A DNA stretch of 64,000 nt from Urechis unicinctus (lineage: Eukaryota > Annelida > Polychaeta > Xenopneusta > Urechidae), in the NCBI GenBank assembly GCA_034190875.2, contig CM067354.1, forward strand, positions 37,154,441 to 37,218,440, given 5' to 3'. Below, in pieces: positions 3,838-64,000 of this stretch; positions within the stretch are counted from its first letter, which is position 1; each line of letters starts with the position of its first letter. The notes beneath the pieces were generated by a model. It did not search any database. It saw nothing but the letters and a program-made list of their open reading frames with translations, and had not been told where the DNA came from. Both the position numbers and the translations under genes were made by a program.

Positions 3838-6391
<2,554 letters not shown>

Positions 6392-7616
6392 TCTGGTTGA
6401 ATTGAGAGAAAAATTAACGTTCAAAAACAGATATTATTGAATGGACAGTGTAGAAATTGTTCTCTCCATGTAGTGCTTGTCACCTGTGTATTGTATGTTC
6501 TGTGTATTGAGTGATGTTGCTGTTTTTATATTAAAAACTATTCGACTAATCTGTGTACAATTGGTATCATTGGGATACAGTGGTTAGATGATTAAAGGAT
6601 TCACAATCAGAATATTTCACACAAAGGATCACACTTCAAATATTGTTTCTTTCTGAATACACTGATACATGATCAGAAATCCGAATACCTTTAGCTTATG
6701 TCATTCCCCTTATAAATTTCTCCAGGTCCCCAAATAGCTTTCCTCTGGGACTGAAGTGACCCATTGACAATTTTGTTACATAAATAAGTTTTGTTGAAAA
6801 TGGAGATATTTGATTGGTCCTGGGCATAATGTACAAATTACCTGATAACAACAAAAACTTTGTCTTTCACCAGTGATTGAAAATTATGCCAGTTTAGATG
6901 GCCACATTAAATATTTCCACTGGTTTGTAATGATCTGTATTGATTATATTTGCTTACAGACTAGATGGATATCCCCCACCCGAAACACACACACAATATG
7001 AATATTACCCGGCCCCTAAATTTTGGCTGTGGTCCCCAAATCTGAGCATGCACGATACAGAGGGTCAGCAGCCAGTTCCTTCTCACATGATTTCTGGATC
7101 AGTTTTCTCGATATATTTGAGGACAAAATCGATATTTTGGCATGTTCCTGTGATGGTGTGACAATGACCAACGTTAGTCCCTACAGTCAAATGCCAACTA
7201 CAAGTAATTATATGATGAACCCAACATTACTGATCATCATCTACAAAATGATATTAGAGTGATAGGGCACAATGAGAAAATCATAATTCAATCACAAATG
7301 ACACAGACTGATTGCTCGAGTCCAAATTTATATCATATCGTACTATTTTTTAAAGTTCCTAATTGATATGTTGCTTCTCACTTGGTGTGTCCCACGACAT
7401 ATCTTTTCGTCGTCTGCGGGGATATAATTGTGGACGACACTATAACAACCTCGTATGATATGACTAATTTATTTCCGGTGACGTCAGTTAAATCACAAAT
7501 TTCTTGTCACGCCAACCAGCGTGAGTTGCTTGTGGGAAGAGCTCGTCTTCATCGTCCACGCATCTCGACTGAGCTGCATTTTCTTGGAGAAGTCTGTCGG
7601 GTGGACTTAGTCCAGT
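6392..7616. other. Pygopus 3'UTR and LARP6 upstream region
   Basis: No open reading frame here resembles a known protein. An ATTAAA-type poly(A) signal lies at about 6529, some 140 bp after the Pygopus stop. The final ~200 bp before 7617 is more GC-rich and probably contains the LARP6 promoter and 5'UTR. Confidence 0.45.
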
Positions 7617-9245
7617 ATGGCATCCGTCGACGGTGCGATAGAGGGTGAGGGCGAGATTGTCGTGGAGGCGCCGTGTAAGATCGTGGCCCCTGCTCTGAGG
7701 GTGGAGGAATTGAAGGAAGAAGATGGGGTGGTCTCCACGGCGACGAGTGACGAGGATGCCACTCTTAGTGTTGGGGAATCATCTGGTGCCTCAGATTCAG
7801 AAGCTGCGTCACCGAAACCATTACCGGAATTCGAAGCCCCCGATGATGAAACGGCTACGCGTATTGTCACTCAAGTAGAATTTTACTTTTCGGATGCCAA
7901 CATACTGAAAGATGCTTTTCTTCTGAAACACGTGCGTAGAAATAAACAAGGGTTTGTCAGCTTGAAATTGGTAACGTCGTTCAGGAAGATGAAGGCTATC
8001 ACTAAAGATTTCCGAGTTGTTGCTTACAGTCTGCGCAAATCAGAGCATTTAGAAGTAAATGGTGAAGGTACCAAAGTAAGACGCATCGCTCCTCTACCCG
8101 AATATGATGAAACTACACCTTCACGAACTGTTATTGCTGTCAACCTTCCTCAAGAAAATCCATCCATCGAATCTGTGTCTCAGCTATTTTCGAGCTGTGG
8201 TGATGTTGCTCTTATAAGGATCCTGAGACCAGGCAAGTCAATTCCTGCTGATGTAAGGAAGCATATTAACAAACACCCTGAACTTGGAAACACTATGTGT
8301 GCTGTTATAGAATTTGAGCATCATGAGTCGGCCAAGAAAGCCTGTGAAACTCTGACAAATACAGAAGACTGGCGAAAAGGTTTAAGGGTTGCACTTTTAG
8401 CACCAAACTCTAAAAAGGAAAAAACAGCTAAGAAGTTACAGGAGGGTAAAAAACCACCTGTTTGCCCTGATACTGATACAAAGAAACCGAATGAAGAAGA
8501 GCCTAGGCCAAAATCTAATGATTTATCAAGTGATGTGAACAAAGTTCACTCCTGTGAGGAGGATAATTGGAGGAGAAGGGATGATGATCATCTAGAAAAG
8601 AAACGTAAAAATGCTCGCTTCAATAAATTATCACCAAAAGGCGATTCATCGGGCTACCTGAGTAGTGGATCTGATATTGAGCATGATACGCCAAATCGGC
8701 GTCACAGCGATGACGGTAGAAGGGTACCATTTCCAAGCCGTGCTTCATTAAGTCCCAAACAAGACACCAACTTACTTAGCCCTAATGCAACTCCAAGAAC
8801 TACACCAAAGACTACACCAAAAAGTAGCCCAAGATCGAGTCCACGTTCAAGCCCAAATTCAAGACGCCGGAATTTGGGAAAGTCCCCTTTGGCTGTGGAA
8901 TCTCTCAGCCCGGGCATCAGTCCACGTGCCAGTCCTGCTGTAAGCCCTGAAATGCAAAGGAGAAAAAATTCTGGTAACATAGAGGCTGCCAATAGCCCTT
9001 CTCAAAGCCCATGGGTGCAACGCCGCCTTAAAGCTCAACAGGAAAGCAGCCCTCTTGCTGGCAATAGTCCTGTGGCAAGTCCTCGTCTGGGCCGTAGGTT
9101 GCCCGATGGATCTCTTGTGGAAGGGACTCCTGCACCCCGTATGGCGGACATGGAGGGTGTTGTGCGACAACCTAAAGGCCCTGATGGTACTCTGGGATTT
9201 CATGCCGGCATAGGAAGAGGCAAGCCTTCTGAGGAAGGTATATAG
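7617..9245 (+). CDS. LARP6: LARP6, La-related RNA-binding protein 6
   Basis: A single open frame of 542 residues. After an acidic N-terminus (1-75), a La motif spans about 78-158 (RIVTQVEFYFSDANI, then KHVRRNKQGFVSLKLV) and an RRM-like fold spans about 171-262 (TVIAVNLPQE, then MCAVIEFE). A Ser-Pro/Arg-rich linker (about 370-500, with TPK/SPR tandems) follows, and the C-terminus carries a SUZ-C-like motif (VVRQPKGPDGTLGFHAGIGRGKP), typical of LARP6. In vertebrates LARP6 binds a 5' stem-loop in collagen mRNAs and regulates their translation; in other animals it acts in mRNA control. The start is the first ATG after an in-frame GC-rich leader. The stop TAG lies inside GAAGGTATATAG, a possible splice donor, so a short extra 3' exon cannot be excluded. 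Confidence 0.93.
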   Translation: MASVDGAIEGEGEIVVEAPCKIVAPALRVEELKEEDGVVSTATSDEDATLSVGESSGASDSEAASPKPLPEFEAPDDETATRIVTQVEFYFSDANILKDAFLLKHVRRNKQGFVSLKLVTSFRKMKAITKDFRVVAYSLRKSEHLEVNGEGTKVRRIAPLPEYDETTPSRTVIAVNLPQENPSIESVSQLFSSCGDVALIRILRPGKSIPADVRKHINKHPELGNTMCAVIEFEHHESAKKACETLTNTEDWRKGLRVALLAPNSKKEKTAKKLQEGKKPPVCPDTDTKKPNEEEPRPKSNDLSSDVNKVHSCEEDNWRRRDDDHLEKKRKNARFNKLSPKGDSSGYLSSGSDIEHDTPNRRHSDDGRRVPFPSRASLSPKQDTNLLSPNATPRTTPKTTPKSSPRSSPRSSPNSRRRNLGKSPLAVESLSPGISPRASPAVSPEMQRRKNSGNIEAANSPSQSPWVQRRLKAQQESSPLAGNSPVASPRLGRRLPDGSLVEGTPAPRMADMEGVVRQPKGPDGTLGFHAGIGRGKPSEEGI

Positions 9246-13028: not shown

Positions 13029-14918
13029 CTTCTCTGGATAGGTCAACGGACCCCATTGCGGTTTACACTTTGTTTGCATGACCTTATAATCAATAAATAC
13101 GCCCCCGGTGAAGTTCGGGTACACGTTGATCGGACGTCGGTATTGCTGTTAACATCAGCTAAGAAACGTAATGGCTTGCCTGTGGTAAATTAAGCTGCAG
13201 ACAATGATGGTGGGTGATGTCATTTAGCCTCAGTCCGTTCAGAAAGCCGCATCGACAAAGTAGCCATCAACTACATAGTGCCCGACACGCATTTATGCGA
13301 CAAAAATATGCCCTTAATCTTTTTGACAGGATAGTCTGAAATTGACGCGTCCCTTTAACTGGGACTGATGACGCACTCAGAACTTATCACCTGGTCATAA
13401 CGCCTGCGTTGTCGATGTCTTTATGCTTGGAACCTTCCCTCCCTTTCCGGATATTGATCGAGTTTGACAAGGGGCTCTTTCATCTTACATTCAAACATAC
13501 AGTTTATGTGTGGAGCACAACAAAGTCGAAATTGAAGCCCTGATTATTTTCTGATGATTCATTTCCGCGATGGGAGTATCAGACGGCTCGACTGAGCAGG
13601 GTGACAGTTTTTCCAATATTGTGATACCTTTATCAATGAACCGACTCAATATTCACCTCGATGTCATCCTATATATATGCCATGTAAACGGGCTCCGGTA
13701 GAGACAGATGACATCGGGATAAGATAAGCAGATGATGCCTGGTGCCACGTGCAGTATGAGGCTCGTTGGGTGTTTACGTTATTTGGAAGCTACCCAAGGA
13801 TGAACTATGGGATTTGTAATTCAAATTACCTCAGTCTACGAAGCCTTCCCTTGTGGTCGAATGATTTCGCCTCTATTTGAGTTCCTACCTTTTCTTTGCC
13901 TTCGTGCCTTTTCAACCGAGTGCCGAACTTACTTGACACCTCCGGCCTTCATATCAATAGATGCCCTGTCCCTCTTTAGTGACAATGTTTAACAGATAAA
14001 CAGTAGGATGTATAGTTTGACGTGAATCAATTTACACTGATGTACTTATAATCCATACATAAGAAAATTCGCAATCATTGGTTGAAGAGCGATGAATTTC
14101 CCTGCTGATGTTGACAAGAACCTTTCTGAAAACAAACATTACTTTTACTCAAACAAACATGACGTATTGAATTGGGATAGAAGTTCAACAGGCAGGGGTG
14201 GTAAAAGAATTCTTAGTTCATTTATCAGACCAAATTAACTAAGTGTATCGTAGTCTTCGCGAATCTCCCAAACACTCCCACGATAGTCACATGGCAGCGT
14301 AGACACCCTCTTTATAACATCAGGCAAGCATATTATTGACGACACATTCGTGAGAGATTATTATTCATTATCATCGGAGTATAATAAGGACGGAATGGAA
14401 GCATTCGGCCGCTGAGTGCCAAAGCGTCAACGTTGAATGTAAGTCTATTCGTGTTTTCCTAATTTTACAGGTAAATATAAGAGGTGCGATGGAGCCGTTG
14501 GGACGAATATACAACAGAGGTCTGATCAACGTAATGTGCACTCTTTTTTGAATCCAAGTTTCAGATTACTCTCACGTTTAAGATCTTTAAGATCTCGCAG
14601 CGGGCGGTCTGTACTTATCAAATGAACCTCCGTTAACACAACCAATATCTTACTCATAGACCTTTCACTTTCAACGCATTTCCGTTATATTTACATAATT
14701 CAAGGTTGTAAATTCCACAAATCACTACACCAATGCTATTTTTAATAATAGTTTGTAGGTTTCCCCCGTTCATAGCCAGGGACAACTAGTTCATGAAGAA
14801 ATCCGCGTTCTATTTTGACGAGTGCCCAGAGTAATAAATTGAACGTAAAATGTGGGATGTTTATGAACGTTTACCCAATTTTATTGACATTGCTGTCGCT
14901 GTATTCTGTGCACAGATC
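13029..14918. other. Intergenic region and probable 5' region of the next gene
   Basis: Nothing recognisable is encoded. The sequence just before 14919 ends in a good 3' splice site (ctgtgcacag followed by atcATG), so an upstream non-coding exon of the next gene probably lies in this interval, but it could not be placed. Confidence 0.4.
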
Positions 14919-16793
14919 ATGGGGTCAGGCGGAAGTAAACACAGTGCTAGGAAACCTAAGGTCACTTTTGCCGAAGAGCGCGATAGAGATGGGCGGTCCA
15001 ACACGATGCGGGATCAGGATACTTTTGACAGCTATGACGAAAACCCACAGGTGTCGAACAACAGAAGAGAAAGCACTGTGTCTCTCGGACAAAAAATTCG
15101 CAACAAAGCCCAGAACAGTGATGCGTTCTCGATACAACCGGCCAGGAAACTGGACAGGGAGTCACCTCCACCGAAAACGCAAGTACCGGAAGTCATACAG
15201 GATGGTGCTAGATTCAGCGGTAAAAGTTCACTAAAACCTTCCAAAACGCACCCAAGTTTTCAGAGAACTTCCCAGACAGTCATGCCCGTAGTGGAAGAGA
15301 CCCCTCCCCAAACGCCATCTCCACCTTTGAGACGCTCCCTTACACCACAGGATGAATTCGTCAGCGACCAGACAACAGAACCGTATTCAACTGGAATGGA
15401 TATTCTTAGCCCAACTCGTCGAGTCAGATTCCACGATAATATCAATCGTAACAGAATTACGAGCAATGAAACTGAGAAACCGAGCATGTCACTTGATTTA
15501 TGGGGTGAAGTTTCGGGGGAAATATATTCCATCACGAATTCAGATCAGCAAAATGAGGAAGTAACGCGCGATAAACAACGCGGAGACAACAGAAAGAGGA
15601 AACCAATGTGGCTTCGTTCAAAGAGCCATGCCAACAATCTGACGAAGAATCAACCTCCCCCTCCTCGCCCAATGTGGAATCCTCCCAATCGCGTTACAAA
15701 CACCTATCAAGCCAGAAAGGAATACGGTCAACATATCAAGCGTGAATTGGCGGGGAAGTCACGTGGCTCCAGCCAAGAGCGTTCCTCTTCCAAGGCGCGG
15801 GACATTCGACGCCCGTCTTACGTTCTCAAAGTATCAGACAAAACCAATGTGAATCGCGTCAAAGTTGGAAAGATCAAAGGAACAGTTATATACGATGGGA
15901 AAGATTACCGTGTTACTTCTGAAGATGACATTAGCGTTTTGAGGCTGAAAGACGAACCTTTCATTCATGGAAATATCAATTATATTGAACACGACTTGCC
16001 CAGTTCCTCATCTAACCCGTCTACGTCTCGATCGACGGTCCATCCTATGTCTGTCCGTTTGTCAGATAATGAAGTGAGCACGCCAGCGTCGGACGTAAGT
16101 GACGATGCGACTCACGCGAAAACCACGTACAACAAGAAGCTTCCCATGAAAGCAGCGCCCTCTGGCGAAGACAAGGACGTATACACTGAAACCTTTATCA
16201 CGCGGCGTCAGTATCCTGGCGTTTCCCCTCGAGAAACGGGGCCAATCAATGGGAAGAGTAATCATATATACTCCACCCCGTCTGACGAGACTGACACCGA
16301 ATCTGACGAGGAAAACTTACCAACAGATCAGCCTCTTAGTCGACAAGACAACGACGGCAGTGAACGTTATGATTCCCACCAAGACTATCCGATTCTACAT
16401 AATGATAACGATCCAACCATCAACGAGAGGCAGTATTCGACACCCCCGGATTACGTCCCCAATATTATCAATAACGATAGCGAGGAACCGCTAACAGACA
16501 ACCCTAGGAAGGGTAAAGTTCCGACTGTACTCTATAATACACCTCGCAGTGACACCAAGAGAATACCAATCATAATGCACTACACCCCAGACGAAATCGC
16601 AAGCAAAGACCAAGCAGACTCGACGCCTAGCGTCACCACAGAACAGACGCAGTCACCACCCACGCGGGGAAGTAAGCCGGTAGTGCGTTTCCAAGGAGGA
16701 GATGTATCCGACGAGGACGAACAGAGTGTACTGCCTTCTCATCACCAAGACACACAAGAATCATCCCCAGCCTCTCATCACAGTGCAACATAA
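14919..16793 (+). CDS. Unrecognised disordered protein with N-myristoylation-type start and RVxF motifs
   Basis: 624 residues in one exon. I do not recognise the family. The ATG at 14919 was chosen because a splice acceptor (cacag) ends three bases before it and because MGSGGSK fits the N-myristoylation consensus (Gly2, small residue at 6, Lys7); the frame is open 23 codons further upstream, probably intron. The protein is low in hydrophobics and rich in Ser, Pro, Asp and Arg, so mostly disordered. The only block that looks structured is about 310-370 (KVGKIKGTVIYDGKDYRV and following). KVTF at 14-17 and RVRF at 168-171 match the protein phosphatase 1 docking motif RVxF, and VVRF at 588-591 resembles it. 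An AATAAA hexamer follows the stop by five bases. A membrane-tethered scaffold is a guess. Confidence 0.75.
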   Translation: MGSGGSKHSARKPKVTFAEERDRDGRSNTMRDQDTFDSYDENPQVSNNRRESTVSLGQKIRNKAQNSDAFSIQPARKLDRESPPPKTQVPEVIQDGARFSGKSSLKPSKTHPSFQRTSQTVMPVVEETPPQTPSPPLRRSLTPQDEFVSDQTTEPYSTGMDILSPTRRVRFHDNINRNRITSNETEKPSMSLDLWGEVSGEIYSITNSDQQNEEVTRDKQRGDNRKRKPMWLRSKSHANNLTKNQPPPPRPMWNPPNRVTNTYQARKEYGQHIKRELAGKSRGSSQERSSSKARDIRRPSYVLKVSDKTNVNRVKVGKIKGTVIYDGKDYRVTSEDDISVLRLKDEPFIHGNINYIEHDLPSSSSNPSTSRSTVHPMSVRLSDNEVSTPASDVSDDATHAKTTYNKKLPMKAAPSGEDKDVYTETFITRRQYPGVSPRETGPINGKSNHIYSTPSDETDTESDEENLPTDQPLSRQDNDGSERYDSHQDYPILHNDNDPTINERQYSTPPDYVPNIINNDSEEPLTDNPRKGKVPTVLYNTPRSDTKRIPIIMHYTPDEIASKDQADSTPSVTTEQTQSPPTRGSKPVVRFQGGDVSDEDEQSVLPSHHQDTQESSPASHHSAT

Positions 16794-17365: not shown

Positions 17366-20300
17366 TTACTCTTGTTTAGGGAGTTTGGGTGTAGAGAAGA
17401 ACAGTTTGAGGGGTCGTAGGATGCTACGAATGACAGGGACACTCCATGAGCGACCCAGTAACTTCTGGCGACGAGTACGCCCCATGTCACCAACATCTGT
17501 GTAGTGCTCGGGGAAGCCGAATATCCTGCCACCAACACACACAGACACATTTCTACTGGCATCATGGGAACATGCTGCTGGGCGGCAGTACCAGGGAGTG
17601 TTATAGTACAATCGTTATTACATAACGGGAAACATTGATAATGTAATGATTGGTTATCCTGAACCTTTCAATTTCAGGGATCCACAGGACATCGTCTGAA
17701 CTGCCCATTTTGACAGGGAAGCGTTTTTCTGTTTTCCCTCTCACCAGTGAGTTGGTGTTAGTTGTGACACATGTAATTTTCTGAAACTGCATCCAAACAA
17801 AACACAAGTGTGAGGGTCAATAGAAGCTAACTAATTGAAGCAATTTGTTATAATCACATGTTGAAAGAACAGAAAATAGATTAAGGAATGAATTTCAACC
17901 TACTTCGCAGTTAAATATCAACCTACTTTGCCATGAAACATCAACCTACTTTGGCATCCCGGCTGGGCATGAGTGCATCCTTCAACTGGCGGTCGCCATC
18001 CTCCGTATCTACCTCAAACCTGTGGTGTAGGGCAGGAATATTACCCCAGAAGAAGCGTTTTCTTTGCTGGGGGCTGAAGTGCTGAGCATCCCACATGCTG
18101 GCAGGGCACTATACAAACACAATCCCCCATTAACATCATTGGCAGGGCACTACACAAACACAATCCCCCATTAACATCATTGGCAGGGCACTACACAAAC
18201 ACAATCCCCCATTAACATCATTGGCAGGGCACTACACAAACACAATCCCCCATTAATATCACTGGCAGGGCACTACACAAAACACAATCCTCCATTAACA
18301 TTCCCACATGGCACACATCACATTGTCAGCAGCTATCACCATCTGCAAGCAGATTGGAAATGGGTAGCTGAGGGTACATTTAACCCCTACCTTATCACCA
18401 ACAAAGCCTGACTTTGTGGCCTCTTTTAAATGCCCCTCATATAGACAACCTTCTACCTCAGCATCCAGTGAATCCCTAATCCTAAATCCATGGAATAGCC
18501 ATCAATAACGACAGGGAATGTGAAACAACCTACCTCAAGGAAGCGAGAAATTGTAGACTTGCTCTCAGCAGACATGGATGCAACATTCTCAAACAGCCAG
18601 AAGAATGGCTGATGGCCAGAGTTTAACGAGTGCAAATCTTGTAAAACCCGGTAGAATTCGTAGAAGAGTAGACCTGTTCCCGCTTCAGTGACAAGGTGGT
18701 AAATAAGGTGCAACAAACATAAGTTGTGGAACAAAAGTAAGAAACACGTACCAAGCCTCACAGAAACAAAGCATCACATTTTTTAAAGCAGTACTACAAT
18801 GAAGTACATATCACAGGTAATAGGCAGCTTAGGTACCAAGTATCACAGGAAGAAATTCCAAGAAACAGATACCAAGTATCACAGGTTCCAAGTAACAGAA
18901 AGTAAGTATCACCAGTCCCAAGGATACCAAGTACCAAGTATTACAGGTCCCAAAGATACCAGGTACCAAGTATTACAGGTCCCAAAAATAACTGGTACCA
19001 AGTATCACAGGTCCCAAGGATACCAGGTACCAAGTATTACAGGTCCCAAAGGATAAATGTTACCAATTATCACCAGTCCCAAAGATAACTGGTACCAAGT
19101 ATCACAGGTCCAAAGGATAAATGTTACCAATTATCACCAGTCCCAAAGATAACTGGTACCAAGTATCACCAGTCCCAAGGATAACAGGTACCAAGTACCA
19201 CCAGTCCCAAGGATAACAGGTACCAAGTACCACCAGTCCCAGGGATAACAGGTACCAAGTATCACAGGTATCAAGGTGCTATGATATATCCCACAAAGCT
19301 TCACCTCCAAGTCCACTTCTGGCTGGGTTGACCACAGACAGCTCATCGCACGGCGAGCCTCCTATCAGCAAGTCGATTCGCCCAAGTGTCTTCAGCTGTC
19401 AACAGTTTTATTGCTCTTCTATCAAGCTCTTCAACTTAGTCTGTTTCTATGTTAAAATACCACACATCATAATGCAATACAAAGGAATATTTAAACAAGG
19501 ACAATCTATTATATTCAGGTGTATTTGGTGAATTTATGTTTGCATATGAACTAAGGGAGTATTTCATGGTTTACCTTGGTATATGAGAGCTTTCTGACAT
19601 CCCCAAGTTGGGTGATCAAGTTGGCCTGTCTCACACTGGTGACTAGAAGGGCGTCCTCGTCAATCTCACACGCGTAGTAAACCTCAACCTCCAAACCCAG
19701 GGCATTAAGTACAAACAGGCCTGAAAACCACAAAATAGACAACTCATAACAAACCAGGGCATCAAGTACAAACAGGCCTGAAAACCACAAAATAGACAAC
19801 TCATAACAAACCAGGGCATCAAGTACAAACCAGCCTGAAAACCACAAAATAGGCAACTCATTACAAACCAGGGCACCATGTACAAACCGGCCTGAAAACC
19901 ACAAAACACACAACTCATTACAAACCAGGGCACCAAGTACAAACCGGCCTGAAAACCACAACTTAGACAACTCATAACAAACCAGGGCATCAAGTACAAA
20001 CCAGCCTGAAAACCACAAAATAGACAACTCATAACAAACCAGGGCATCAAGTACAAACAGGCCTGAAAACCACAACTTAGACAACTCATAACAAACCAGG
20101 GCATCAAGTACAAACCAGCCTGAAAAACACAACTTAGACAACTCATAACAAACCAGGGCACCAAGTACAAACCGGCCTGAAAACCACAAAACAGACAACT
20201 CATAACAAACCAGGGCACCAAGTACAAACCAGCCTCAAAACCACAAAATAGACAACTCATAACAAACCAGGGCATCAAGTACAAACCGGCCTGAAAACCA

Positions 20301-23300
20301 CAACTTAGACAACTCATAACAAACCAGGGCACCAAGTACAAACCAGCCTGAAAACCACAAAATAGACAACTCATAACAAACCAGGGCATCAAGTACAAAC
20401 CAGCCTGAAAACCACAACTTGGACAACTCATAACAAACCCAGGCCATTATGTCATATTAACCAGTGCAATTATTGCTAGAATGTAAACAGGGAATGGAAA
20501 TGAATGCAGCAACATCCTGGAATAAATAACTTCACAAGCTGTTACCATGCCATATCAATAATTCAAAAGAAACTAGGATTAATTTGCAACATGGAAAAGT
20601 TAACCAACTTGACCTAATTAACAAATGTTATTTCATATCACACCTGTGCCTATACCATCAAAGAGGGACAGTACTCGGAGTGGTCTCTTCCTCGGCGTTT
20701 CTCCACCAAGCCCTCTCACGTCACACTAACAATCATAAACTCATGCAATTAAAAACTAGTGAAAAACTTACCAAGTTCAAGAATGTTTTTTAAAGAGAGC
20801 AGCTGTGGTTTTTTAAAATCACACTATTTTACTCACACTATGTTTGGCGACTGGGAGACAGAATGACATGAGATCTTCGTCGGATGTGTCCCGCACTTGG
20901 ATGCCAAACTGTTCAATGGCTTCATGAATCTCTTCCTTTTTGAGCATGCTGATCCTCTTACAACAGAGGTAACAAGACCAGAGCTTACTCCCCTTTACCC
21001 TCAGCAGCTCCGACTCACCTCCAAACAGCGACACACATCGCCTACAGTACACCCTGCACACATTACCAACAGCAACAAACAAACCAAAAGTCACAATACA
21101 GTACAGACATGTGGTCTAGCTACAGGACCTAGAAAATAGGTGATATCATTAGGGAGATGTGGCTGTCAGATATGAGAGAGATTCAACTAGTACTTGCTAT
21201 ATTCAGTACCTGTTACAGGTGGCAGTATCACACATGTACTGCTCCCCTCCGCGGCCACACACCGTGCAGTACACCTACACATCACACACACACCGTGCCG
21301 TACACCTACAAATCACACACACACCGTGCAATACACCAACACATCGCACACACACACCATGCAGTACACCTACAATCACACACACACACCATGCAATACA
21401 CCTACATGTCACACACACACACCGTGCAGTACACCTACACATCACACATACACACCGTGCAGTACACCTACAAATCACATACACACCGTGCAATACACCT
21501 ACACATCACACATACACACCGTGCAGTACACCTACAATCACACACACACACCGTGCAATACACCAACACATCACACACACACACCATGCAGTACACCTAC
21601 ACATTACACACCGTGCCGTACACCTACACATTACACACCGTGCAGTACACCTACACATCACACACACACACACACACCGTGCAGTACACCTACACATCAC
21701 ACATACACACCGTGCAGTACACCTACACATCACACACACACCGTGCATACACCTACACATCACACACATAAGAGGTGATACAAGAGCTCATCACACACAC
21801 ACATATGGACCTCTCTCCCATACACCAGGCGGAACACCAGTTCGTCACACACACACATGGCAAGATTCCATGCAGCGTCTTGTGTTAGTTATGTACAGTT
21901 CAGCTATCTCTTTGATTGGATCACTGACAGAGGAAGAATCTACCATCACTTCACATGAACATACAAAATGGAAAAGAATATTCATAATTCAATAAACAAA
22001 CACCAAAAAACTCACATATCCACCATCTTCATCACAAGTGACAACAGCCTCAACGAGCAGCTTCTGTTAGGCATAAATCATTCGTAATTTACTTTTGGTT
22101 TCAAACATGTCCACAAAGATGTTAACAGTGCGAGCATGTTGTTGATGTTACCTTGCAGCTTATGCAGAGACCCCCCATGAAGTATGGATGCTGAAGCTTA
22201 GCGTCACAGTCTCCACAAGCTAAGCACACATCTATATATGCAAGCATGATTAGGCGCACAAAATGACTGTACAAAATGAATTGCTTAGGGAAGATGCAGT
22301 CAAGGAGGATGCTGTCAAGGCTGTAGAATGTAGAAGAGACGCTAGTAGAGATGATGGGAAATGGGAAATACAAAATTAAGTTGTCGACTGGTTTATATAT
22401 CCCCCACCCCACTACCCGCGGCACTAAACTTTTTCTCACCTTATTCTCACTTTATTCCAATAGCATCAACACCTCGCCCAGGGAAGTGAGTTGTGAAAAC
22501 ATACTATTACAGATGGCGGATGTCAATAAGACTACCATCTTTGTTCCTTATTTGTTCCTATTTTCGGTTAGAAAAAAAACGGTCCTAGATCTGAGGGCGA
22601 GTTATGCAGATTCGCAAGTAAAAACAACGCAAGTTATCAGGGCATAGCTGTATGCCATCAATTACTAAGTCATGCTTTTAAGTTGTACCTTGAATGTTGA
22701 CTTTGTTGGCCTCAACAGCAGCCCAAGCTGTTTCTAAAAATATGAAAAAGCAAATCGAATATTACAAACTTCCATCTTCTGTTTATCAACATGGATCCAA
22801 ATGTTAAGTTGGATGCCTGTTAGCTGGTATGGTTGATTGGTAGAGCTTACTATACAACCGATTTCAAATGTGACCTCTATTTTTGTGGCGTTCTCTTAGT
22901 TTGTCAGATCTATCAAGGTCCTCTTTGGAGCCGCCTCCATCATCCTCATCATCGTCATCATCACTGTCCTCATCATCTCCATCGTCATCACAGTCTGTAG
23001 AGGAGCTGCTATCACTGTCACACTGGTTCAACTTCTGCAGCTTCTCCATACAGCCGAGTAACCACTCCGGGAAAAGGTCAACCCCTGAATGAATTGACAG
23101 AAAAACCTAAACCATATCATTAGCACTATAATGTATGGACACAGGATCATGCTATAATATAATAACAAAATGGAGGTTTGTGCATCATGATAGGACAGCT
23201 AGGTTGCTTTGAAGAAAGTGTGTTGTTAACGTTTGCAAGCGGATGGTCAAACAGAGAAATGATAAATTAGTAGTAGATGCGTTATATATTCTTTACTTAA

Positions 23301-25194
23301 TAGCCTTGTTCCATTATGACTCAATGTGATTGAATCATAATGCATACTATCACTGCATTGAAAACAAGTGTTTTTTCGACGCAGCTTAACCGCACACCAA
23401 CACTGATGTGCTATATGGTGCCTACAAAAGTAAAGTGAATATAAAGAGATAAGATAAATGGAAAAAATAGAAAACAAAGGAGTCAGTTTTTAACACCAAT
23501 GACCCACCATGCACCGGTTTGTAGAGGTCTGATTGCGGCTGTCTACAGATAGGGAATCCATTGAGAGCCCACTTGACTGGGTCCTCGTGTTCAGATGATG
23601 CTAGGTCCGCTCGACGCATGCATTCCTACGCACCAACAATAACATGGGCAGCATTCTTTATGAACACATCTTCAGACCCATTAATCCCTGAAACTCATTC
23701 CTATTGTCTCAGATAACATTAGCATATATTATGCAAAGAATGTGTCACCTTATGTCATTCAGAGCAAATACCCCATAGTTTAACAAAGCAGGTCTAACCT
23801 GGCTATTGTTCTAATAAAATATCGAGATAATTGATAGGACAACCAAACATCCCATATTGATATGAAGTGAGACCACATCCTGACTATGCCAGAAGCTATA
23901 AGTACTGATAATTTTCCATTAGAACATGATACAAAATACATCAATGTTTGGATAAAGGCAATAGATCTTGACCCCCTACAGCATTCACCATACAATACCT
24001 ACTCTGATGGCCTGTATGGTGGCTAGATATCTCTCCTTGTTCAGCGTGATGTCATGGTGATGGCGCCCGTAAAGTGCAGTGAACGCCTCTAAACCTCCAA
24101 TCTTCACCTGTGTACAACCAAGTGTAAATCATACTACAACTTTCACAAATATACCCTGTAATAATTATGAAATACAAATGTGAGTTGTGAATGAGGAATA
24201 GCATAACATAGGAGAAATGGAAACCAAGCAAATGACACATATTCTTAACCTCATACTGGACAAAAGAACAATAGTATCTTAAACAATTGTGGAAAGTATG
24301 GTTGACTTCATCTGACTATAAAACAAAGAATTACAATACTGAATATAAGCTGTGCACACACTCAGGCATCACAATAAGGCGAGATATTCTCATCCATCTA
24401 ACCTGAGACACTTTGTTTTTCGAGCCAAACCAGAGGAGCCATGTGTTGTCCTGTTTAGGTGGGGCCACTCCCACACAGGATGCCTCCACCACCACAGCAG
24501 GCCAGTGATGCTTGCTGAAGGGGCACCATACTAGAGTGCCAGGCTCACACAGTTCCTACAGGGGTCAAACAACAGGGGTCAGACAACAGGGGTCAAACAA
24601 TAGTGATTAGACAACAGGGGTCAGACAACAGGGGTCAGACAGCAGGGTTTAACAACAGGGGTTGGACAACAGGAATGTCACTGCAGGTGACAATCAGTGA
24701 GGTGAAGGTCAGTGGTAGGTGTGGTCATTATAACTTGATCAAGCCATCACTGACCTGCTTCAAAAGAGCCTTGTTCTGTAGGGTGTACATCCGCTTCGTC
24801 TTGGCTGGCTGAACAGTGTTTCTCTGGTGAATCCAACAGATGCAACAGTTAAACACAGTTTCAATGCAACGAAAATTGACTCCTTACGAAAACGCTTAAC
24901 CCCTAAATGGACGTCCCCGCAGCATAGCATACAATATGAAGGCACATTTCAAAGGGGCATTTAGATACAGACACTGGATTGCATAGCCAGGAAAGGCTGG
25001 AAACATCGCGACAATCAAGATGATATCTGTTTAACACACGAGTTAGACTACATCATTTGACATCTTCACAAAACTAATCCTCTCACCTTCAAGAAGGTTG
25101 GAGGAACACCAGAGACGGGCCGTCTTGTCGGTGGACGGCCTATAGGTCTACGTCCATTAACTGACGACCGACGTCTTCTCTTGTAAGCTGTCAT
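17366..25194 (-). CDS. DNMT3: DNMT3, de novo DNA (cytosine-5) methyltransferase, complete, 18 exons
   Basis: Exons from the start: 25087-25194, 24755-24823, 24403-24555, 24003-24107, 23508-23625, 22875-23084, 22689-22733, 22152-22231, 22016-22063, 21210-21274, 20837-21053, 20644-20725, 19575-19720, 19305-19395, 18534-18682, 17950-18108, 17665-17786, 17366-17525. They sum to 2127 nt with consistent phases, giving 708 residues. Order: AT-hook-like [13 protein letters not shown] (about 14-26), PWWP (about 60-145, with HHWPA and WLLWFG), acidic Asp/Ser linker (about 195-235), ADD zinc-finger domain (about 265-385, with DVCLACGDC and [10 protein letters not shown]), and the methyltransferase: motif [11 protein letters not shown] (425-434), catalytic Cys498 in [13 protein letters not shown] (543-546), and [10 protein letters not shown] near the end. 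In the family, ADD reads unmodified H3K4 and PWWP reads methylated H3K36 to direct CpG methylation. Four introns carry arrays at their 3' ends. Confidence 0.96.
18109..18300. repeat. 41 bp minisatellite carrying copies of a DNMT3 3' splice site
   Basis: Four to five units of about 41 bp lie directly upstream (gene sense) of exon 17950-18108. On the minus strand each unit contains the polypyrimidine-like tract, the TGTAG acceptor and the first ten exon bases (TGCCCTGCCA). Confidence 0.9.
18800..19285. repeat. Minisatellite in the DNMT3 intron after the catalytic-Cys exon
   Basis: Irregular units of about 29-36 bp built on ggtaccaagtatcacaggtc and cccaaggata. The array stops about 20 bp short of the donor of exon 19305-19395, so no splice site is included. 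Confidence 0.85.
19721..20445. repeat. 57 bp minisatellite carrying in-frame copies of a DNMT3 3' splice site
   Basis: About 12 units of 57 bp run from exon 19575-19720 into the upstream intron. On the minus strand each unit contains TTTTCAG|GCCTGTTTGTA, which is the real acceptor and the start of the exon (copies at 19777, 19834, 19891 and so on). Since 57 is a multiple of three, the coding frame stays open across the first eight units, until a TGA near 20235. Confidence 0.92.
21275..21775. repeat. CA-rich minisatellite carrying copies of the ADD-exon 3' splice site
   Basis: About 15 units of roughly 26-36 bp follow directly on exon 21210-21274. On the minus strand most units contain TGTAG|GTGTACTGCACGG, identical or nearly so to the acceptor and first exon bases. 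CA dinucleotide runs of varying length separate the units. Confidence 0.9.
24556..24675. repeat. 14 bp tandem repeat abutting the PWWP-exon 3' splice site of DNMT3
   Basis: About eight units based on acaacaggggtcag. In the gene sense they read as CCCCTGTTG stretches, and the last unit differs by one base to form CCCCTGTAG, the acceptor of exon 24403-24555. Confidence 0.85.

Positions 25195-33178: not shown

Positions 33179-64000
<30,822 letters not shown>

What the first reader, a model, noticed from the sequence alone, without database searches (positions are those of the whole stretch)
19575..20445. DNMT3 minisatellite whose 57 bp unit copies a 3' splice site and stays in the coding frame
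Each unit on the minus strand carries TTTTCAG|GCCTGTTTGTA, the real acceptor and exon start. The exon frame is open through about eight upstream units, so use of an upstream acceptor would insert one to eight blocks of 19 residues ([19 protein letters not shown]) just after methyltransferase motif I. Copy-number change in the array would change the set of competing acceptors. A repeat that can generate in-frame variants of a catalytic domain is unusual.
Basis: partly seen in the sequence, partly recalled or inferred. Interest (0 to 1): 0.75.

Follow-up and report, generated by a model that had tools for sequence, protein, structure and literature searches.

The report
Splice-site minisatellite in a DNMT3 gene
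A short DNA repeat has copied one splice site of an animal DNA-methylation gene a dozen times; this is a known kind of oddity, most likely tolerated and spliced out as intron, although it is a good natural test of how cells choose among near-identical splice sites.

Summary
On the minus strand, 12 full 57-bp units lie directly upstream of the real acceptor (19720) of the DNMT3 exon after motif I. Eleven of 12 copied acceptors score within 1.4 bits of the real one or better; the nearest is identical over 50 bases. Nine of 12 give an open frame; the three farthest meet a TGA. It fits the "mirages" described in lancelet genes: minisatellites that duplicate an intron-exon boundary, reportedly without disturbing splicing. 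The same DNMT3 gene carries three more (33-bp and 41-bp acceptor arrays, 23-bp donor array); a neighbouring PC1-type convertase gene carries at least two and a kinesin gene one. In the 33-bp and 41-bp arrays every tested upstream acceptor (13 and 4) leads to a stop, so the exon-proximal copy must normally win. An open in-frame array is near chance expectation, and the 12 variant types among units are all nonsynonymous, so nothing shows a coding role. An in-frame isoform generator is not excluded but unlikely.

The parts
17366..25194 (-). DNMT3 gene (PWWP-ADD-methyltransferase by my reading of motifs), 18 coding exons, 708 aa
   Evidence: Exons joined without a stop (e16 and e17 of that script are contiguous and count as one exon); a typed fragment matches DNMT3A at E 2.9e-43. 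Exon ends chosen by me from splice consensus, frame and recalled DNMT3 motifs.
19575..19720 (-). Authentic exon 13 ([16 protein letters not shown]...), directly after motif I ([10 protein letters not shown])
19692..20447 (-). 57-bp minisatellite: 12 full units, a partial distal unit and 29 bp of exon 13; each unit has about 33 bp of intron end and 24 bp of exon start
19777..20233 (-). Nine upstream acceptor copies that leave the frame open (8 CAG, 1 GAG)
20234..20404 (-). Three distal acceptor copies (20290, 20347, 20404) whose use meets TGA
21256..21768 (-). Second mirage: 33-bp array (16.1 copies) over the acceptor of exon 21274-21210 (ADD by my reading); 13 upstream TAG acceptors, all lead to a stop
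18099..18301 (-). Third mirage: 41-bp array (4.9 copies) over the acceptor of exon 18108-17950; 4 upstream acceptors, all lead to a stop
17887..17957 (-). Fourth mirage: 23-bp array (3 copies) that repeats the donor GTAGGTTGA at 17949, 17926 and 17903
   Evidence: not found by the 24-mer test at 80%
24558..24673 (-). 14-bp array that ends 2 bp before exon 3; abuts but does not span the junction
33180..64000 (+). Start of a PC1/3-type proprotein convertase gene (start approximate); 12 exons found, up to right-hand coordinate 70647 (L005:6647); the model is incomplete. Carries at least two mirages
63972..64000 (+). 42-bp array over the donor of convertase exon E6 (AAGATTGGAG|GTAAGC), continuing to L005:99; a further merged array, first row of period 42, lies at L005:230-2082
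   Evidence: not found by the 24-mer test at 80%

Best explanation
It is a mirage: a minisatellite seeded by tandem duplication of a segment that straddles an intron-exon boundary and then expanded by slippage or unequal exchange. Shown: the unit is intron end plus exon start, the copies are local to this one place, both edges keep a 58-bp spacing with GGG while the 12 inner units share a one-base shorter form, and the gene as a whole is intact. Inferred: in the transcript the upstream copies stay intronic, because the copy next to the unique body of the exon, within a normal exon length of the donor, is the one recognised (exon definition). The open frame through nine units is incidental. Rare use of the nearest copies may add 19 to 57 residues after motif I, most likely as non-functional noise.
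For: Array and unit anatomy; edges and spacing; single place in the assembly. Local site strength cannot explain the choice: 11 of 12 copies score 10.4-12.6 against 11.8 for the real site, one 7.2, and the 19777 copy is identical over 50 bases. Sister arrays in the same intact gene would wreck it if upstream sites were used: 13 of 13 upstream TAG acceptors (33 bp; two further units end in TTG and were not tested) and 4 of 4 (41 bp) lead to a stop. Convertase arrays: 0 of 18 AG copies in frame and open (50 bp), 1 of 7 (35 bp). No sign of coding constraint: 12 variant types, 12 nonsynonymous, 22-25% synonymous expected. Exons would be 203-830 nt with upstream sites against 146. Six purine-rich tetramers that I picked occur at 6.6 per 100 nt in the exon body and not in the unit (chosen after the fact). 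Literature: passages of PMC3087553 and PMC3902484.
Against: No RNA was seen, so use of 19720 alone is inferred. Zero synonymous of 12 variant types is itself slightly unusual (0.03-0.05). The species is not identified, so the lancelet splicing result is carried over by analogy. Recalled in vitro work (Reed and Maniatis 1986) found that of two equal acceptors the upstream one can be favoured. PMC3087553 itself allows that repeats could act as cryptic sites.
Confidence: 0.82

Rival explanations
1. A working generator of in-frame DNMT3 variants: upstream acceptors are used to a regulated or allele-dependent extent and add blocks of 19 residues after motif I.
For: Nine of 12 upstream acceptors are in frame and open; 11 of 12 copies are about as strong as the real site; the nearest three give exons of 203-317 nt.
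Against: An open in-frame array is expected by chance in about 1 of 6; all 12 variant types nonsynonymous; 10 of 12 units change the Leu; an insertion beside the cofactor loop would probably harm the fold (inference, not modelled); the other acceptor arrays tested break the frame at nearly every site.
Confidence: 0.06
2. A dosage effect: competing acceptors cause some mis-splicing and decay, so array length tunes DNMT3 output without useful variants.
For: Three distal copies lead to TGA; most copies are strong; tested upstream sites of the 33-bp and 41-bp arrays lead to stops.
Against: Reported lack of disturbance in lancelet mirages; no transcript or allele data here; no second copy of the locus in the assembly.
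Confidence: 0.1
3. Assembly artefact.
For: Tandem arrays are hard to assemble; no reads were seen.
Against: Units differ from one another, the array is at one place in a 79.6-Mb contig, and similar arrays occur in two other genes.
Confidence: 0.02

Closest known systems
Lancelet 'mirages' (Adh3, globins BflGb6 and BflGb9, TnC, PGBD5); PMC3087553 and PMC3902484, passages read
   Same: Minisatellite-like tandem duplication of an intron-exon boundary, at acceptors or donors, many copies with splice signals.
   Different: Here a DNMT3 gene with four such arrays; 12 upstream copies in the 57-bp array and 26 (18 with AG) in the convertase array, against 6 and 3 units in the two BflGb6 haplotypes; unit in frame and open. 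Host not established as a lancelet.
[quoted passage not shown] the paper itself is not held)
   Same: A minisatellite that multiplies a splice site.
   Different: [quoted passage not shown] here acceptors, use unknown.
Intron gain by tandem genomic duplication (PMC4974935; search listing and start of abstract only)
   Same: Tandem duplication in a gene, linked to splice signals.
   Different: There a new intron is gained; here the end of an existing intron is multiplied.

Membership tests
Mirage (minisatellite over an intron-exon boundary) | Tandem repeat whose unit spans a real intron-exon boundary | tested here: met
   the boundary is inferred from homology and frame, not from RNA
Mirage (minisatellite over an intron-exon boundary) | Repeat units contain consensus-like splice signals | tested here: met
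   11 of 12 copies 10.4-12.6 bits, one 7.2, real site 11.8
Mirage (minisatellite over an intron-exon boundary) | Regular splicing is not disturbed | not testable with these tools
   No RNA; indirect only: frame-breaking sister arrays in an intact gene
Mirage (minisatellite over an intron-exon boundary) | Copy number varies between haplotypes | tested here: inconclusive
   A DNA search of the assembly found only the window's own copy
Mirage (minisatellite over an intron-exon boundary) | Host is a cephalochordate (as in the two papers read) | tested here: inconclusive
   GFP family 0 matches and mollusc hemocyanin 0 matches, both with controls that rang nowhere; COX1 0 matches; C1q 13 matches; truncated 18S only
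DNMT3 DNA methyltransferase | Sequence similarity to the DNMT3A/3B catalytic domain | tested here: met
   E 2.9e-43 to DNMT3A, best of 37 sequences; Pfam on two single ORFs of the gene gave 0 families

The most novel reading that the evidence does not exclude
The array is a length-variable switch: some individuals or tissues use upstream acceptors and make DNMT3 with one to nine extra 19-residue blocks beside the cofactor loop, so that repeat number changes a DNA methyltransferase and hence methylation.
Probability: 0.05. Interest if true: 0.8.

Novelty: new member of a known kind. Interest (0 to 1): 0.4.

Why it matters
Eleven near-equal acceptors and a weaker twelfth in front of one exon, with other acceptor and donor arrays in the same gene, are a natural experiment on what lets the spliceosome choose between sites of equal strength; the frame is open for nine of them, so mis-splicing there could leave stable, countable products. 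It also shows that one conserved gene can carry four such arrays. If the animal proves not to be a lancelet, mirages are wider than the two papers read report.

Tried and rejected
Rejected: that the open frame is selected. Rejected as strong evidence: enrichment of arrays on junctions. In DNMT3, 4 of 7 arrays span a junction (the purely coding 15-bp array dropped) against 0.78-1.52 expected when each array is collapsed to one unit (P 0.002-0.04), but 4.1-4.3 expected when full lengths are placed (P 0.73-0.80); without the given array 3 of 6, P 0.006-0.08. In the convertase gene 3 of 31 arrays span (one by a single base) and 3 more lie within 15 bp; 0.9-1.3 expected. That model is incomplete: 12 exons, at least one between E5 and E6 not found, none sought after E12 with success. 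The 24-mer test hits 3 of 34 DNMT3 and 2 of 23 convertase junctions, exon interior 0.3-0.5%, intron interior 34-38%, so junctions are hit less often than intron interiors; it misses the two donor arrays that TRF sees. Kinesin sample: 143 matches found, of which 56 lay in loci held; 10 introns placed, 0 of 20 junctions hit; 1 of 112 exon edges spanned by an array and 3 edges with an array near, not counted; the one is a 37-bp acceptor array reaching about 6 bp into the exon.

Led nowhere: Pfam on single DNMT3 ORFs, 0 families; Rfam on the window, 0; Pfam six-frame scans of 43.3-47.5 and 52.7-57.0 kb, 0 families; naming the organism. My guess that it may be the lancelet Asymmetron rests on recalled chromosome number and genome size and is not a result. 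No structure prediction was run.

Full report
What is there. TRF finds a 57-bp array at 19692-20447, 13.2 copies. Read on the minus strand, 12 complete units precede the real acceptor at 19720, and the array runs 29 bp into the exon. The exon belongs to a DNMT3 gene whose 18 coding exons join to 708 residues without a stop. The stretch around the array, [20 protein letters not shown], aligns colinearly to DNMT3A (E 2.9e-43), so 19720 is the conserved exon start and the unit is a copy of it.

Splice sites. A weight matrix from 28 acceptors of this gene and its neighbour gives the real site 11.8 bits, the highest of the 28 when each is left out in turn; 11 of 12 upstream copies score 10.4-12.6 and the GAG copy 7.2. 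The 19777 copy is identical over 40 intron and 10 exon bases. Local strength therefore cannot tell most of the sites apart.

Frame. Nine of 12 upstream acceptors (20233 to 19777) read open into the exon; 20290, 20347 and 20404 meet a TGA made by the TTTTGAG variant. Is this special? A shuffled unit is open in 51% of cases and a length divisible by three has a chance of one third, so about one array in six would look like this, or 0.84 of five acceptor arrays. The other four do not: 33-bp array, 13 of 13 upstream TAG acceptors give a stop; 41-bp array, 4 of 4; convertase 50-bp array, 0 of 18 AG copies in frame and open (26 copies, 8 without AG); 35-bp array, 6 of 7 stop, one open. One in five is thus close to chance. 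Within the 57-bp array the 12 variant types are all nonsynonymous, against 22-25% synonymous expected (probability of none 0.03-0.05), and 10 of 12 units replace the Leu by Trp or Arg. Nothing speaks for a coding role.

Origin. Both ends of the array keep CCTGGGTTTG, while the 12 inner units have CCTGGTTTG. The 16-bp stretch TAATG(G/C)CCTGGGTTTG stands once in the intron and once in the exon, 742 bases apart, that is 58 after removal of 12 x 57. A simple history is a 58-bp duplication between these two short repeats, or an array edge that preserves the old state, with a one-base loss in the founder of the inner units. In either case the in-frame length would be derived from one small deletion. 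The two histories cannot be told apart here.

Not alone. Three further DNMT3 arrays contain a junction: 33 bp over the acceptor of the exon at 21274 (array 21256-21768), 41 bp over the third acceptor downstream of exon 13 (18099-18301) and 23 bp over a donor (17887-17957). The gene to the right, a PC1/3-type convertase, has a 50-bp array with 26 upstream copies of a boundary, 18 with AG (L005:2758-4101) and a 42-bp array over a donor (window 63972 into L005). A 35-bp array abuts another of its acceptors, and an array at right-hand coordinate 69367 reaches one base over a donor. A kinesin gene on contig C8 has a 37-bp array over an acceptor. In the kinesin sample as a whole the phenomenon is rare: 1 of 112 exon edges, 56 of 143 matches examined. 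Whether arrays prefer junctions is not settled; the outcome depends on the null chosen.

How it most likely works. Shown: the gene is intact, yet in the 33-bp and 41-bp arrays every tested upstream acceptor would truncate the protein. Inferred: the spliceosome therefore normally takes the copy next to the exon body. A likely reason is exon definition: the real exon is 146 nt, upstream sites would make it 203 to 830 nt, and six purine-rich tetramers that I picked are frequent in the exon body and absent from the unit. Use of the nearest one to three copies would be the most plausible leakage.

Compared with what is known. Passages of PMC3087553 describe minisatellite-like duplications of intron-exon boundaries, called mirages, in lancelet globin and Adh3 genes, say that RT-PCR suggests no interference with regular splicing although repeats could act as cryptic sites, and give haplotypes with 6 and 3 units; a passage of PMC3902484 adds TnC and PGBD5. 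The present array fits that description. A human minisatellite that provides multiple donors is known to me by its title. A search with DNMT3, minisatellite, splice acceptor, amphioxus and mirages listed 4 papers with three or more terms; the two on mirages do not contain DNMT3, and the other two are on mouse retrotransposons and Xist by title. Earlier searches did not use DNMT3 as a term. All cover open-licence papers only.

Species. The assembly has 1.19 Gb in 926 contigs; the 13 contigs whose length was shown among those fetched measure 44-91 Mb. Family searches for GFP and mollusc hemocyanin found nothing, but their controls rang nowhere, so they do not decide. I leave the species open.

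Noticed in passing
L005:2758-4101 (continuing from the window): 50-bp array, about 27 copies, repeating the acceptor and exon start of a PC1/3-type convertase exon; 26 upstream copies, 18 with AG.
   Followed up: partly
window 1-64000: Tandem arrays make up 25% of the window by a hand-merged list of 36 arrays that leaves out several short ones, 24.6% of 214 kb by automatic merging, against 6.8% in 24 kinesin regions of the same genome.
   Followed up: partly
L050, about 2542-2838 (contig C8, minus strand): 37-bp array, 8 copies, over the acceptor of a kinesin exon (DMNEHSSRSHS).
   Followed up: partly
window 18864-19266: 32-bp array, 12.6 copies, inside a DNMT3 intron and not touching a junction.
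   Followed up: no
window 5798-9245: PHD-finger exon (Pygopus-like by my reading) and a La-domain gene with SUZ-C (LARP6-like by my reading).
   Followed up: partly
window 14838-16793: Open frame of 651 residues without a Pfam match.
   Followed up: no
L004:1-1678: Rfam matches the 3' part of an 18S rRNA here, in contig C6; the locus was the only exact match to the universal pattern used.
   Followed up: partly
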